A stretch of 64,000 nucleotides of DNA from Gamsiella multidivaricata (lineage: Eukaryota; Mortierellomycota; Mortierellomycetes; Mortierellales; Mortierellaceae). Made by a program: the position numbers and the translations under genes. The DNA is taken from positions 1-64,000 of the forward strand of contig NW_026251730.1 in the NCBI RefSeq assembly GCF_025024155.1. Direction: 5' to 3'. A model generated the notes under the pieces. The model saw only the letters and a list, made by a program, of their open reading frames with translations. It had not been told where the DNA came from and searched no databases. Of the stretch, positions 37,774 through 43,108 are shown one piece after another (within the stretch, counting starts at the first letter, position 1; each line of letters starts with the position of its first letter).

Positions 37774-37782
37774 GGTCCATGG
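37774..37782. repeat. 9-bp target-site duplication, left copy
   Basis: GGTCCATGG directly before the left terminal inverted repeat; the identical 9-mer lies at 43100-43108. Confidence 0.9.
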
Positions 37783-38202
37783 TAGGCTCGACCCAGCCCT
37801 CTCTTCCAGTTAAGGAGGTCGGAAATGTAATTTCCTTTTTAGGCCTCCTACTTCAGAGGGGCTGGTAAAAAAGAATGGGTCGCTGGCAGGGTTCGAAAAT
37901 GGAAGGTTCTTAAGGGTATTTTCAGGCTAAATCATGCAAATACAGGATACAGGGCATACATTCCATAGTCGCAAGGTCGCGCTGGCATGCGCTGGCATGC
38001 GCCATGGCCATGCATAACAGCACAATAAAATATTAAAAATATGCTGCTCCTCCCTCACCTCACATCTTTCTTCTCTCAGCGGCTCGCCTCCTTACATTAC
38101 TTAAAACTGGTATGTTGCTCATCTCTGAAGACATTGCTAAGCAGTCTAAAGATGAATCGCGTAAAGCTCCCAGTGACTTATCAATTCAATCTCAGTCCTC
38201 AG
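37783..38202 (+). repeat. Left 420-bp terminal inverted repeat with promoter and coding start
   Basis: Reverse complement of 42680-43099. Contains a duplicated GCTGGCATGC motif, an AT-rich AATAAAATATTAAAAATATG segment just before the ATG at 38041, and the first 54 codons of the helicase frame. The repeat ends on a codon boundary. Confidence 0.95.
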
Positions 38203-40032
38203 CAGCAACTCATCAACATGGCCCTACCGTTCAACCGTGAAGAAGCTATCAAGCGGTGTCAAGATGTCTTCCATATCACCCCTAAAGACTTGCAGCTGGA
38301 TGTCGTCGAATGCATCGGTACCGGTCGGGACTGTATTCTGATTGCTGGATGCGGCTGGGGCAAGTCCCTTGTATATTTTCTACCGACGGTGCTCTGGACC
38401 GATCGGATCATCGTTGTAATATCACCTCTGAGGGCTTTGATACAAGAACAGCAGCTGAAACTTGCAAGCTTGGGCATCCGCAGCACGGCCCTCATGGGCG
38501 GAGACATCACCGGGATTGACTCTGGAGTGGCCGCAGGATTGTATAGGGTTATTTTTATGACACCAGAAATCATTTTTGAGAACAAGCGCGTGCAGGAACT
38601 CTGGTTCGACAAGAGATGGCGAATGCGACTGCAAGCCGTTGTCCTGGACGAGGCTCATTGTGTCACCTCTTGGGGTACCACTTTCAGAAAGCTATATGGC
38701 CGCCTTGGAGAACTCCGGACGTGGGTGCTTCCCAGCGTGGCGTTCATTGCTGTATCGGCCACTCTTCCGCCCCAAGCCCTTGCAGATCTCAAACACAGGA
38801 TCCATTTCAAGGGCTCTACATCTGTCATCAATGTTGGTAACGATCGCCCTAATATACGACTGGAAGTGCGACACTTCAAGCCAAACAACAAGCTGAGGCA
38901 TCTTGATTTTCTTATGGACTTCCAAAAGACCATTGTTTATTTTGAAAGCCGGAATGAGACCGTTACGGCTATGAGGTACTTGCAAGGGTTGGTGACCGAT
39001 GTCAACGATAGCAGGATTGCCTCCTGTCTGGGGTCGGAGCGCACTCAGGAAGCTTTGGAATCCTCGGCCACAAAGAAGGACATCACCCTCTATCATGCAC
39101 TCATGTCCGAGGACTACAAGCGGAAGACCATGGAGGCATTCAGGCAAGGCAACATTCGCTTGTTGCTATCTACAGAAGCCGCTGGAATGGGATGTGATAT
39201 CAACGACGTCGACCGTGTCGTTCAGGTCAGGTGCCCCACTAGCATTTCATCCCTTGTGCAGCGTCTTGGTCGTGCAGCTCGTGATCCGAAACGTCAGGGG
39301 CTCGGTATTTTATTGGTACCACCACCATCCGATGAGACCAAGTACGCCGACGAGCATCTCAAGGAGTACATCGTCACTCAAAAATGTCGCAGAAAAGTCC
39401 TCAATGACGTCTATGGCAATGTGCATCATCCGAACGAGAATTGCTGCGATCTTTGTCACCCTACACGGAAATCTTCATATCCGCAGGGGCAGATCTCCTT
39501 CACAAAAGTGCTCACCGCTGTCACCTTGACAACCGCTTACATACCAAAAACTCGAGTCCCCAAGCGCACGTTTGAGCAGAATGAGCTGGCCAAGGAAGCA
39601 CTGCGGAACTGGAGAGCAATGGCATTTGTGCGCGATTTGGCACCACTCTGTGATTCCTTTGAGCCGCGCTGCGTAATGACGGACAATATGATCCAGGTGC
39701 TTGGGGAGAATTTCGCAAAAATCACAACACCCGCAGATATTCGTTCTATCATCACTTGGACACCTGTGGTTGAGCTACAACGGCAGGAAGTAGCCGATAT
39801 TCTCATCAGACTGAACAAGGATATTGACATGGCAAGTGCACAGCCGCCACAGGAAGCGGGCCAGTTCATTGACGGTCAAAGCGGAGCAAATATAGAAATT
39901 GATCGAGAAGCAGATGAGTCTCATCAAACGCCCGCTGCTGTGACTTCAAAGCCTACATCAAAACGACCGAGTTTATTCAAGAATAGGACTGCATCAAATT
40001 TCTTTAGTCCCAAGAAAAGCAAGAAAAACTAA
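38041..40032 (+). CDS. RecQ-type SF2 DNA helicase of the transposon
   Basis: 663 residues, single exon. Motif I is GCGWGKS (103-109), a RecQ-like variant; DEAH box VLDEAHCVTSWG (about 201-212); motif III SATL (239-242); motif V STEAAGMGCDINDVDRVVQ; motif VI QRLGRAAR (407-414). A RecQ zinc-binding-like segment has Cys at 449, 468, 469 and 472. The C-terminal ~190 residues are charged and end in a Lys-rich tail suited to nuclear import. No HRDC domain is seen. RecQ helicases unwind DNA 3'-5'. Here it presumably serves element replication, repair or end processing. Translation may start at Met1, at Met38, or at Met60 (38218, good context, just inside the inner edge of the repeat). Confidence 0.9.
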   Translation: MLLLPHLTSFFSQRLASLHYLKLVCCSSLKTLLSSLKMNRVKLPVTYQFNLSPQQQLINMALPFNREEAIKRCQDVFHITPKDLQLDVVECIGTGRDCILIAGCGWGKSLVYFLPTVLWTDRIIVVISPLRALIQEQQLKLASLGIRSTALMGGDITGIDSGVAAGLYRVIFMTPEIIFENKRVQELWFDKRWRMRLQAVVLDEAHCVTSWGTTFRKLYGRLGELRTWVLPSVAFIAVSATLPPQALADLKHRIHFKGSTSVINVGNDRPNIRLEVRHFKPNNKLRHLDFLMDFQKTIVYFESRNETVTAMRYLQGLVTDVNDSRIASCLGSERTQEALESSATKKDITLYHALMSEDYKRKTMEAFRQGNIRLLLSTEAAGMGCDINDVDRVVQVRCPTSISSLVQRLGRAARDPKRQGLGILLVPPPSDETKYADEHLKEYIVTQKCRRKVLNDVYGNVHHPNENCCDLCHPTRKSSYPQGQISFTKVLTAVTLTTAYIPKTRVPKRTFEQNELAKEALRNWRAMAFVRDLAPLCDSFEPRCVMTDNMIQVLGENFAKITTPADIRSIITWTPVVELQRQEVADILIRLNKDIDMASAQPPQEAGQFIDGQSGANIEIDREADESHQTPAAVTSKPTSKRPSLFKNRTASNFFSPKKSKKN

Positions 40033-40033
40033 T

Positions 40034-42841
40034 TTATAAAACATATCCGGCATTAAAAAGCGATCTAATATATTCCTCCGCTTGATTGTCCTCGTTCTTC
40101 AGACCATCAACAACAACAGCGTCTTGTTCATCGCCACCTAAATTGACGCTTTTCTCGACAAACTTCTCGAAGCGTCCATCTATCAATTTTTCCAGACCTT
40201 CACTGACCAGGTTTTTCACAAGCGGTACACTGCAGTCTCCCGGCCGCGCATTGCCGAGAATGTCATGGTCCTTGAGCGACTGCTGGATTAATTGAATGTC
40301 CCGCTCTGCGGACAGTGTTGAGTGAAAAGAGCTGTTGTGTGTTATGTCGTACTCTGACTCAAGCGTCTTGGCGATCTTCGAGAATAAGCGGATATTTGTT
40401 GATATCTGGTTGGCTAGCATTTCCCATGACATGTTGCTCTCTTTCCCTGAATGTATAGTCTTGGTCAGCAGATTGTTGTGTTCCTGATACAAGTCCGCCG
40501 GAATCCACCCGCTCGCCTTGCCGTTGGTATTAATCAACCAAGATGACACGACTGCCTTTGTCCATTGCGGTGACCATGCATGACGAATACCGTAAGCGAG
40601 GCGCATGAGTTCGTTCGCGTAATTTTTCGTCTCCTTGGACTGGAACATGACAGTGATCACCTTGATGACCTCGAGGATCCGCCCGACGTCTCCAACCTTG
40701 ATGGCTGCACCCAGTTCCATATAAACCATCATGTCCCTGAGAAATAAGGCCGCGTTTGCATTTGCATTGCCGAATTTGCGAGGGTTCTCCATCGGATCGG
40801 TGAGATACTGGTGACAGATGGCCTCGGTAGCTTCGCGGACGCGTTTGTCTAGCGCTGCGTTCCCAAGCGGTGCCTCATAGCTTGTCCCGAACGTTTCCAG
40901 CTTCTGAGTATTCAGTATCCTGTCGTCTAATACCTCATCATTCAGCATATCGATATCCAGTATCTCATCATCCAGTACCTCTGGCTTCTGGGCGTCTGGC
41001 TTTTCGGCATCCGGCTTCTTGGCATCTGGTCTCTGAACATTAAGTTCAACCTCATAAACCCGTCTCACCATTGCATCAAAGATATGCCTCAGCACTTCAT
41101 CTGCAGCGTGATAGTTCGGCGAGTCTAGGTTCACGCGTTTACGGCCCAGCATAGTTATGAAGAAAGCCAGTGATCCTGGCTCCGAAATACGTCCGTAATG
41201 CGTGCGAAGAATCGTGCTGCAAAAGAGCATCTGGAGGTGAAATAATTGCATAACAGGGACCGCCCATTCTAGTCGATTAAAAGGCGTGGTGTCTGCTGCA
41301 CGCAATTCCTGAAGGGATATGACCCTGGAAACGGTCAGTTGATCTCCAGAAACTATGATCCTTGTATTGCTGTTGAACCAGTCCTCCGGCAGTTTAAGCA
41401 TGATCTGGGTGATATCCTGCAAGACGTCGAGATTGCCTTCATTTGTCGATTGATCGTGCCTCATCGCAGGTAGTGGAAAGGTTAGCGTCTGGCGGGTTGG
41501 GAGAATCTCGAGTTCAGGAACATGGATCGAACAGCGCTCGTACGTGCTGTAATGCCGCTGTAGCATGTCAAAGAGGTGGAATGTATAGACGAGCTTCATA
41601 TGCGAACGGTTCTGCTGATCGGGTAAAAAATCCGAAAGTTGGGGCGGTCTCAGTAGACTCTGAGCTGAGGTTGGCGTGCCGAGATCCTCGCCGATTACAA
41701 TGGTGGCGGTGGTGCCGTTCTCAAAAGTGTCGCCATTGTAGGTCCGCTGATCATATTTTCGATTCGCGATGTTGATGTTGTCGTAAAGAATTGAAAACGG
41801 ATGGTTCCGAACTGCCTCTCGGACTCTGCTGAGCATATCGTTTGATAACTGTGTGAGGGCGTTATGGGTCGTCATAGGCGAAACACATAGACCGATAGAG
41901 GCGAGTACATTCACCACGCGCTTTGGACATCTTGTGGCCGCGAAATACAGTCCGAAGATCATCTGCAAACGGTTTGACTGCTGGCTCTGACGAACTACCA
42001 GCATGCTGGCGATGGTTGATACAATTGTCGTTAACTCCCGCGGGTGATAAGGCAAGTCGTCGCACCCCTCCTCTTCCTCTTCCTCCTCCTTCTCCTGCTC
42101 CTTCTCCTGCTCCTTCTCCTTCCCCTTCATCTTCTTCTTCTCCCTCTTCTCAATACTCTTCATTGCTTTATTCTTGCGCAGCTTCTTCTCCTTGTACGCC
42201 AATCCTCTTAAAAGTCTTATGAGGCAGGGTGCTGAAGAGTTGAGCTCCTCCTCAATAGGATCCAAGGAAAATCCTTCGACATGTGCGTGGGTAACACTCC
42301 TGGCGCTCGTTTGCAAACTTCCCCCGTTATTGACTCTTCTGAGATCCTTCCGTGCTCGACCAATGACAACATCCGTGACAGCTTCCGTGAAAGTTTCGTC
42401 GTTCTTCGTGTTTTCGACCTTGCCTGCCCATTCGTTGATCAGGACAGCTGGACCATCTTGGGCGATAAACATGCCAACGAAGAATCGAACCTTACTGTCG
42501 CCAGACCGGAAAGCCTTCAGCAAAAATGAGCGCAGCGTGAAGTGATTTTCCTGGATAGCCTTAAATACGTTGGCCAGGCGAACGTTCTCTGGGGCGTAGT
42601 CGCGCGACATGCTAGCAGCTGCAGTTTCGTCGATAATGTTGTTTGCAAAAATGTACGCCATAGTGTTCGCTCTTGAGGACTGAGGACTGAGATTGAATTG
42701 ATAAGTCACTGGGAGCTTTACGCGATTCATCTTTAGACTGCTTAGCAATGTCTTCAGAGATGAGCAACATACCAGTTTTAAGTAATGTAAGGAGGCGAGC
42801 CGCTGAGAGAAGAAAGATGTGAGGTGAGGGAGGAGCAGCAT
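40034..42841 (-). CDS. DUF6589-like protein, candidate transposase
   Basis: 935 residues, single exon, fully open. Features in order: 54 residues shared with the helicase; a Lys/Glu-rich charged block (215-260); then ILYDNINIANRKYDQRTY with Asp354, IIVSGDQLTVSRVISLQELR with Asp500, NRLEWAVPVMQLFHLQMLF, and PADLYQEHNN with Glu787. The sequence around YDN, ENGTTATI, GDQLT, FHLQM and DLYQEH is what I remember of the fungal family DUF6589. The spacing of Asp354, Asp500 and Glu787 would fit an RNase H-like DDE core; that is inference. A PDAKKPDAEKPDAQKP-type repeat and an LDDEILDIDMLNDEVLDD repeat lie between the last two. Alternative start at Met61 (42661). It faces the helicase tail to tail. Confidence 0.82.
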   Translation of the reverse strand: MLLLPHLTSFFSQRLASLHYLKLVCCSSLKTLLSSLKMNRVKLPVTYQFNLSPQSSRANTMAYIFANNIIDETAAASMSRDYAPENVRLANVFKAIQENHFTLRSFLLKAFRSGDSKVRFFVGMFIAQDGPAVLINEWAGKVENTKNDETFTEAVTDVVIGRARKDLRRVNNGGSLQTSARSVTHAHVEGFSLDPIEEELNSSAPCLIRLLRGLAYKEKKLRKNKAMKSIEKREKKKMKGKEKEQEKEQEKEEEEEEEGCDDLPYHPRELTTIVSTIASMLVVRQSQQSNRLQMIFGLYFAATRCPKRVVNVLASIGLCVSPMTTHNALTQLSNDMLSRVREAVRNHPFSILYDNINIANRKYDQRTYNGDTFENGTTATIVIGEDLGTPTSAQSLLRPPQLSDFLPDQQNRSHMKLVYTFHLFDMLQRHYSTYERCSIHVPELEILPTRQTLTFPLPAMRHDQSTNEGNLDVLQDITQIMLKLPEDWFNSNTRIIVSGDQLTVSRVISLQELRAADTTPFNRLEWAVPVMQLFHLQMLFCSTILRTHYGRISEPGSLAFFITMLGRKRVNLDSPNYHAADEVLRHIFDAMVRRVYEVELNVQRPDAKKPDAEKPDAQKPEVLDDEILDIDMLNDEVLDDRILNTQKLETFGTSYEAPLGNAALDKRVREATEAICHQYLTDPMENPRKFGNANANAALFLRDMMVYMELGAAIKVGDVGRILEVIKVITVMFQSKETKNYANELMRLAYGIRHAWSPQWTKAVVSSWLINTNGKASGWIPADLYQEHNNLLTKTIHSGKESNMSWEMLANQISTNIRLFSKIAKTLESEYDITHNSSFHSTLSAERDIQLIQQSLKDHDILGNARPGDCSVPLVKNLVSEGLEKLIDGRFEKFVEKSVNLGGDEQDAVVVDGLKNEDNQAEEYIRSLFNAGYVL

Positions 42842-43099
42842 ATTTTTAATATTTTATTGTGCTGTTATGCATGGCCATGGCGCATGCCAGCGCATGCCAG
42901 CGCGACCTTGCGACTATGGAATGTATGCCCTGTATCCTGTATTTGCATGATTTAGCCTGAAAATACCCTTAAGAACCTTCCATTTTCGAACCCTGCCAGC
43001 GACCCATTCTTTTTTACCAGCCCCTCTGAAGTAGGAGGCCTAAAAAGGAAATTACATTTCCGACCTCCTTAACTGGAAGAGAGGGCTGGGTCGAGCCTA
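42680..43099 (-). repeat. Right 420-bp terminal inverted repeat
   Basis: Inverted partner of 37783-38202; carries the promoter region and first 54 codons of the DUF6589-like gene. Confidence 0.95.
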
Positions 43100-43108
43100 G
43101 GTCCATGG
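43100..43108. repeat. 9-bp target-site duplication, right copy
   Basis: GGTCCATGG directly after the right terminal inverted repeat. Confidence 0.9.

What the first reader, a model, noticed from the sequence alone, without database searches (positions are those of the whole stretch)
37774..43108. Young 5.3-kb transposon encoding RecQ helicase plus DUF6589-like protein, 420-bp TIRs, 9-bp TSD
Seen in sequence: gap-free 420-bp inverted repeats without visible mismatch, identical GGTCCATGG on both outer edges, two intact convergent genes and nothing else. Known: RecQ-like helicases occur in subtelomeric and mobile contexts, and some DNA transposons (Academ, Helitron) carry helicases. To my knowledge, DUF6589 has no accepted function and this pairing is not a described superfamily. 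Inference: DUF6589 is a transposase and the helicase aids replication or end processing. The intact state suggests current or recent activity.
Basis: partly seen in the sequence, partly recalled or inferred. Interest (0 to 1): 0.96.

Follow-up and report, generated by a model that had tools for sequence, protein, structure and literature searches.

The report
Young helicase-bearing jumping gene, AcademH-type
A soil fungus carries intact, recently moved copies of a DNA transposon whose two genes are a protein of unknown function (probably the transposase) and a RecQ-like helicase; it most likely belongs to an already described helicase-carrying group (AcademH), and its main new value is that it gives a likely job to the unnamed protein family DUF6589.

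Summary
The element is 37783-43099 (5317 bp): 420-bp terminal inverted repeats (TIRs), 100% identical; 9-bp target-site duplication (TSD) GGTCCATGG; two intact convergent ORFs, a RecQ-family helicase (663 aa) and a DUF6589 protein (935 aa). The host is Gamsiella multidivaricata. A second full copy differs by 3 bases and has its own TSD. Eight further, diverged elements also have inverted ends and 9-bp TSDs (of ten examined, nine exact, one with a 1-nt indel). Two of them sit inside the tip of a third, whose intact other tip shows the empty site. Of 22 DUF6589 loci, 18 have a convergent helicase beside them. D-D-E columns hold in 53 of 53 filled rows, so DUF6589 is very probably the transposase. 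I could not compare DUF6589 with an Academ transposase (paper not held, structure prediction off), so membership is probable, not proven. New as far as searched: the DUF6589-transposase link.

The parts
37774..37782 (.). left copy of the 9-bp target-site duplication GGTCCATGG
37783..38202 (+). left terminal inverted repeat, 420 bp, outer end 5'-TAGGCTCGACCCAGCCC; holds the 5' leader (and 54 ORF codons) of the helicase gene
38041..40032 (+). helicase ORF, 663 aa; start deposited for the C99 copy is codon 60; RecQ family (TIGR00614 E 1e-56, below that model's curated cut-off), DEAD at residues 84-248, Helicase_C at 334-414
40034..42841 (-). DUF6589 ORF, 935 aa; deposited start at codon 61; candidate transposase
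40322..41641 (-). stretch matching Pfam PF20231 (DUF6589), residues 401-840
41780..41782 (-). codon of D354, candidate catalytic aspartate 1 (YDNIN)
   Evidence: catalytic role inferred
41342..41344 (-). codon of D500, candidate catalytic aspartate 2 (GDQLT)
   Evidence: catalytic role inferred
40481..40483 (-). codon of E787, candidate catalytic glutamate (DLYQEHNN)
   Evidence: catalytic role inferred
42680..43099 (-). right terminal inverted repeat, 420 bp, identical to the left; holds the 5' leader (and 54 ORF codons) of the DUF6589 gene
43100..43108 (.). right copy of the target-site duplication GGTCCATGG

Best explanation
The segment is a recently transposed class II (DNA) transposon, apparently autonomous, most likely of the AcademH lineage. 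SHOWN: the ends are long perfect inverted repeats starting TAGGCTCG; insertion duplicates 9 bp; the element and its relatives moved repeatedly in this genome; both genes are open in four of six elements read, and those four are diverged in a way that fits selection on both proteins. INFERRED: the DUF6589 protein is a DDE-type transposase (D354, D500, E787) that binds the two TIRs, cuts or nicks the element ends and joins them to target DNA with a 9-nt stagger, which host repair turns into the TSD. INFERRED: the RecQ-like helicase unwinds DNA during end processing or during the copying repair that restores the donor copy. INFERRED: because both genes start at or in the identical TIRs and converge, each TIR doubles as promoter and leader for one gene, so both are expressed together, much as in maize MuDR (MuDR recalled from memory).
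For: Perfect TIRs. Two full copies with different 9-bp TSDs and 3 differences in 5317 bp; a third copy runs off a contig end, 875 of 875 bp identical. A second family (7211 bp, 673-bp TIRs at 99.6%, both measured on the C1 copy) has four copies with four different 9-bp TSDs: TGCCTGGCC, ACATTTCTG, CACAGGCGT, AGTATTTAG. C118 element: 629-bp TIRs, 100%, TSD GGGAAATTC. Three elements on C147, two of them in the right tip of the first, with TSDs TTTAGGGGT, GATGGGAAC/GATGGAAC, GGAACGAGC. A convergent helicase lies beside 18 of 22 DUF6589 loci, which are not all independent. In four diverged elements with both ORFs open (39-53% aa identity in pairs), third codon positions differ most in 12 of 12 comparisons. 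D-D-E in 53 of 53 filled rows. In print: AcademH makes 9 or 10 bp TSDs and carries a helicase (passage), is low-copy in Basidiomycota, Ascomycota and Mucoromycota (passage); fungal Academ copies with DEAD/recQ_fam (passage); this helicase's best NCBIfam hit is recQ_fam TIGR00614.
Against: No Pfam transposase domain besides DUF6589 was convincing in 58 proteins. Two of the six elements read have broken or intron-split genes: C1 (both genes in pieces) and C147 element 2 (DUF6589 in two ORFs). In the stretches held of C125, C22, C94, C60, C63 and C149 no terminal inverted repeats were found, although only C125 was held past both genes. Four of 22 DUF6589 loci and 5 of 23 helicase loci are unpaired. 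No expression or excision data. Identical TIRs may partly reflect gene conversion, so 'young' rests mainly on copy-to-copy identity.
Confidence: 0.8

Rival explanations
1. DUF6589-RecQ elements are a superfamily separate from Academ that picked up a RecQ helicase independently and happens to share the 9-bp TSD.
For: No homology test against an Academ transposase was possible here; RecQ helicases were also recruited by KolobokH and by a red-alga Kolobok (passage); no held paper turned up by the terms DUF6589 (0 papers) or PF20231 (1 unrelated paper) ties the family to transposition.
Against: Helicase, 9-bp TSD and fungal host match printed AcademH features (passages).
Confidence: 0.17
2. A Mutator-like element (MULE): 9-bp TSD, long TIRs and two convergent genes with promoters in the TIRs, as in MuDR (recalled).
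For: Anatomy is very MuDR-like.
Against: 0 of 58 DUF6589 proteins hit a MULE domain at E<=0.1; the conserved motif between second D and E reads QLFH, not the C/DxxH printed for MuDR; MuDR's second gene is not a helicase (recalled).
Confidence: 0.06
3. A Kolobok element with RecQ helicase (KolobokH or a relative).
For: KolobokH has a RecQ helicase and is known only from fungi; one red-alga Kolobok has the RecQ helicase on the complementary strand, as here (passage).
Against: Kolobok duplicates TTAA (recalled); the ten elements examined here have other duplications, nine of exactly 9 bp and one with a 1-nt indel; [quoted passage not shown]
Confidence: 0.02
4. A host RecQ and a host DUF6589 gene caught by a segmental inverted duplication, or an assembly artefact.
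For: Long perfect inverted repeats can arise in assemblies; C9 shows a 3-kb palindrome running to a contig end.
Against: Several copies with distinct flanks and 9-bp TSDs, and nested insertions.
Confidence: 0.01

Closest known systems
AcademH DNA transposons (Kojima 2020; known to me here only through passages of PMC10045372 and PMC10799480, paper itself not held)
   Same: helicase gene, 9- or 10-bp TSD, occurs in fungi including Mucoromycota, low copy
   Different: here the candidate transposase is recognised as Pfam DUF6589 and lies on the opposite strand from the helicase; whether printed AcademH has the same gene layout, TIR length or termini could not be checked
AcademX
   Same: Academ superfamily
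   Different: nuclease instead of helicase and 3- or 4-bp TSD (passage)
KolobokH
   Same: fungal DNA transposon with RecQ helicase (passage)
   Different: [quoted passage not shown] TTAA target (recalled)
MuDR / MULE (recalled)
   Same: 9-bp TSD, long TIRs, convergent genes read from the TIRs
   Different: no MULE domain in 58 of 58 DUF6589 proteins at E<=0.1; second gene is a helicase

Membership tests
AcademH | 9- or 10-bp target-site duplication | tested here: met
   ten elements with both ends held: nine exact 9-bp TSDs, one with a 1-nt indel
AcademH | encodes a helicase; fungal Academ copies carry DEAD / recQ_fam | tested here: met
   PF00270, PF00271; TIGR00614 E 1e-56, 192.7 bits against a curated cut-off of 219.8
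AcademH | transposase homologous to Academ transposases | not testable with these tools
   no Academ reference sequence at hand; paper not held; structure prediction off
AcademH | low-copy occurrence in Basidiomycota, Ascomycota, Mucoromycota | tested here: inconclusive
   this family: 2 full copies plus 1 at a contig end, 22 DUF6589 loci in all. Named DUF6589 hits are Mortierellomycota and one basidiomycete, Schizopora; whether 'Mucoromycota' in the passage covers Mortierellomycota is not said; searches scored only 8000 candidates, so absences mean little
KolobokH | TTAA target-site duplication (recalled) | tested here: not met
   ten elements examined, none with TTAA
MULE/MuDR | 8-10-bp TSD and long TIRs (recalled) | tested here: met
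MULE/MuDR | MULE transposase domain | tested here: not met
   0 of 58 members at E<=0.1
DDE transposases with C/DxxH motif (hAT, P, MuDR, Kolobok, Dada) | D-D-E triad with C/DxxH between second D and E | tested here: inconclusive
   D354, D500, E787 in 53 of 53 filled rows; the motif at the matching place is Q532-x-x-H535 (98% each), not C/DxxH; D718, D783 and H840 are invariant too
Helitron | no TIR/TSD, HUH Rep plus Pif1-type helicase (partly recalled) | tested here: not met
   TIRs and TSDs present; no Rep or PIF1 domain in either protein at E<=1

The most novel reading that the evidence does not exclude
DUF6589 elements are a transposon superfamily of their own, distinct from Academ, with a DDE transposase of a new subtype (QxxH in place of C/DxxH) regularly paired with a RecQ helicase that drives replicative, helicase-dependent transposition, and with TIRs that serve as twin promoters and, in some elements, even supply a common N-terminus to both proteins.
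Probability: 0.15. Interest if true: 0.75.

Novelty: new member of a known kind. Interest (0 to 1): 0.42.

Why it matters
It gives a probable function (transposase) to a Pfam family of unknown function, suggests that many genes annotated 'DUF6589' or 'RecQ/sgs1-like helicase' in Mortierellomycota are transposon genes, and offers near-identical copies with clean ends for testing why such a transposon would carry a RecQ helicase.

Tried and rejected
Subtelomeric helicase origin (TLH, recalled): set aside, because the C99 copy lies about 188 kb inside its contig and the elements have TIRs and TSDs; the C96 copy is 38 kb from a contig end, and telomeres were not sought. Assembly palindrome: rejected by distinct flanks and TSDs. 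Empty site for the focal insertion: the joined flanks match only their own locus, so none was found; the empty-site evidence comes from the C147 elements instead. Viral contig scan with the protein profile: 65 pattern matches, 0 relatives. PDB profile search with A1: 0 hits at E<=1. The profile-based protein search (the third) gave 13 hits, all DUF6589: Mortierellomycota, unnamed sources and Schizopora; only 8000 candidates were scored, so the lack of animal hits says little. Paper searches: DUF6589 0 papers; PF20231 one unrelated paper; AcademH 7 papers, of which I looked at passages of 4; transposon/RecQ/Mortierella/Academ wordings, where no listed title or abstract start describes this pairing (searches list 20 of 31, 20 of 24 and 20 of 23 papers).

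Full report
WHAT IS THERE. The finding is accurate. The element spans 37783-43099 (5317 bp). Its ends are 420-bp inverted repeats, 100% complementary without gaps, flanked by GGTCCATGG on both sides. Between them lie two convergent ORFs with one base between their ends: a 663-aa helicase (DEAD E 4.9e-21, Helicase_C E 2.6e-17; best NCBIfam model recQ_fam TIGR00614, E 1e-56 but 192.7 bits against a curated cut-off of 219.8; best solved relatives WRN, RecQ and BLM) and a 935-aa protein with DUF6589 (E 4.9e-94). The RecQ zinc-binding domain scores only E 0.026, under its cut-off.

HOST. The protein P0001, 100% identical to the DUF6589 ORF in its best local alignment though 4 residues shorter than the ORF from the same start, is deposited as Gamsiella multidivaricata BC939DRAFT_447007 on a contig of 470868 bases, the length of the window's own contig C96. 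The window is thus from that fungus.

IT IS MOBILE. A search of the 37.5-Mb own genome found a second full copy, C99:188728-194044, with 3 differences in 5317 bp (all T here, C there) and its own duplication GAGGGGTCG; a third copy is identical over 875 bp and then runs off the contig end of C126. More distant relatives behave the same way. C118 holds a 5389-bp element with 629-bp TIRs, 100%, and TSD GGGAAATTC. Four near-identical copies of a 7211-bp element (673-bp TIRs, 99.6%, measured on the C1 copy; C95 and the second C96 copy 0 mismatches over 5418 and 5394 of 7211 bases held; C148 one gap in the stretches compared) sit in four places with four different 9-bp duplications, TGCCTGGCC, ACATTTCTG, CACAGGCGT and AGTATTTAG. 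On C147 element 1 (TSD TTTAGGGGT) received element 2 in its right tip (GATGGGAAC on one side, GATGGAAC on the other), and element 3 lies a few bases further on in what is left of the same tip (GGAACGAGC). The undisturbed left tip of element 1 gives the empty-site sequence. In all, ten elements had both ends held; nine have exact 9-bp TSDs and one a TSD with a 1-nt indel. Of the other DUF6589 loci, the fourth C147 pair shows 134 bp of perfect TIR before the contig stops; in the stretches held of C125, C22, C94, C60, C63 and C149 no terminal inverted repeats were found, but only C125 was held past both genes; the rest were not fetched.

THE TWO GENES TRAVEL TOGETHER. Clustering the hits (45 of 64 and 42 of 75 rows used; the rest were weak or short pieces, other helicases or TIR-only matches), 18 of 22 DUF6589 loci have a helicase in convergent orientation within 3 kb of the 3' end; 4 of 22 do not, and 5 of 23 helicase loci lack DUF6589, two of these (C63, C126) at contig ends. 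The 18 are not independent: two are the focal family's copies and four are copies of the 7.2-kb family. Of six elements whose ORFs I listed, four have both genes in long open frames; C147 element 2 has DUF6589 in two ORFs and the C1 element has both genes in pieces (introns or damage). The four open ones are 39-53% identical in protein, and third codon positions differ most in 12 of 12 pairwise comparisons, as expected under selection on both proteins.

TIRs AND GENE STARTS. In the focal copy each ORF enters the TIR by 54 codons, with the same letters (ending MNRVKLPVTYQFNLSPQ) at both ends, but the deposited proteins start at codons 61 and 60. In C147 element 1 the longest ORFs of both genes begin with MNSYTNTA inside the TIR, and in C147 element 2 the helicase ORF and the first DUF6589-side ORF both begin MTAPPPYPPQPAIPCQVRTAERCLGADMD. 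So the TIRs hold the 5' leaders and, in some elements, apparently the start codons of both genes. That they act as twin promoters is inference, by analogy with MuDR (recalled).

IS DUF6589 THE TRANSPOSASE? In an alignment of 58 proteins, D354, D500 and E787 are D, D and E in 53 of 53 rows with all three columns filled; D354 lies in YDNIN, D500 in GDQLT, E787 in DLYQEHNN; [quoted passage not shown] QxxH is similar but not the same. D718, D783 and H840 are also invariant, so the choice of triad is mine. The basidiomycete Schizopora protein (DUF6589 E 3.1e-72) keeps the first two D motifs and LFH but ends before E787. Apart from DUF6589, Pfam hits in the 58 were few and scattered: one weak transposase helix-turn-helix (E 0.054) and one reverse-transcriptase RNase H pair in one member, probably a neighbouring retroelement. 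Being the one non-helicase gene of an element that leaves TSDs, DUF6589 is the transposase by elimination as well as by motif, but catalysis is not shown.

COMPARISON WITH THE KNOWN. A passage of PMC10045372 says that AcademH generates 9 or 10 bp TSDs and AcademX 3 or 4, and links this to the helicase or nuclease they encode. A passage of PMC10799480 says AcademH occurs at low copy in Basidiomycota, Ascomycota and Mucoromycota. A passage of PMC6416283 says most fungal Academ copies contain domains such as DEAD/DEAH helicase and recQ_fam. [quoted passage not shown] Of the AcademH paper itself (PMC7165386) I saw nothing, as it is not held. On these grounds the element fits AcademH in TSD length and helicase, with host range and copy number compatible, while homology of its transposase to Academ could not be tested.

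VERDICT. A real, recently active DNA transposon, most likely AcademH. The kind is known; the identification of DUF6589 as its transposase appears not to be in the held papers under the names DUF6589 or PF20231 (the one paper with the latter string is unrelated), but the AcademH paper itself could not be checked.

Noticed in passing
own genome C147:7771-25623 (L032, L034, L044, L052, L054, L064-L067): Two related elements sit within about the last 20 bp of a third one's right tip, with readable TSDs giving the order of insertion; hints at a taste for their own tips.
   Followed up: partly
own genome C9:93578-96571 / 97033-100026 (L007, L070, L071): A 2994-bp inverted repeat (99.8%) reaching the contig end; near its 461-bp centre lies a 107-bp, 87% match to the focal TIR. 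A palindrome perhaps started at a transposon tip, or an assembly artefact.
   Followed up: partly
own genome C105:323496-323572 and C170:356839-356915 (L025, L027): A 77-bp tip of the TIR (91-92% identical) sits inside an AT-rich palindrome in two places, like a small non-autonomous element.
   Followed up: no
own genome C22:55630-55708 and C161:157689-157756 (L006, L008): Solo TIR tips of 68-79 bp, 99-100% identical to the focal TIR, without the rest of the element next to them in the search hits.
   Followed up: no
own genome C1:924696-931906 and copies on C95, C96, C148: A second, longer family (7.2 kb) with four near-identical copies whose genes need introns or are broken in simple reading; termini GAAGCTCTGAACCC rather than TAGGCTCG.
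   Followed up: partly
window 38835, 40440, 41566: The only 3 differences from the C99 copy are all T here against C there on the + strand of the window, as cytosine deamination could give.
   Followed up: no
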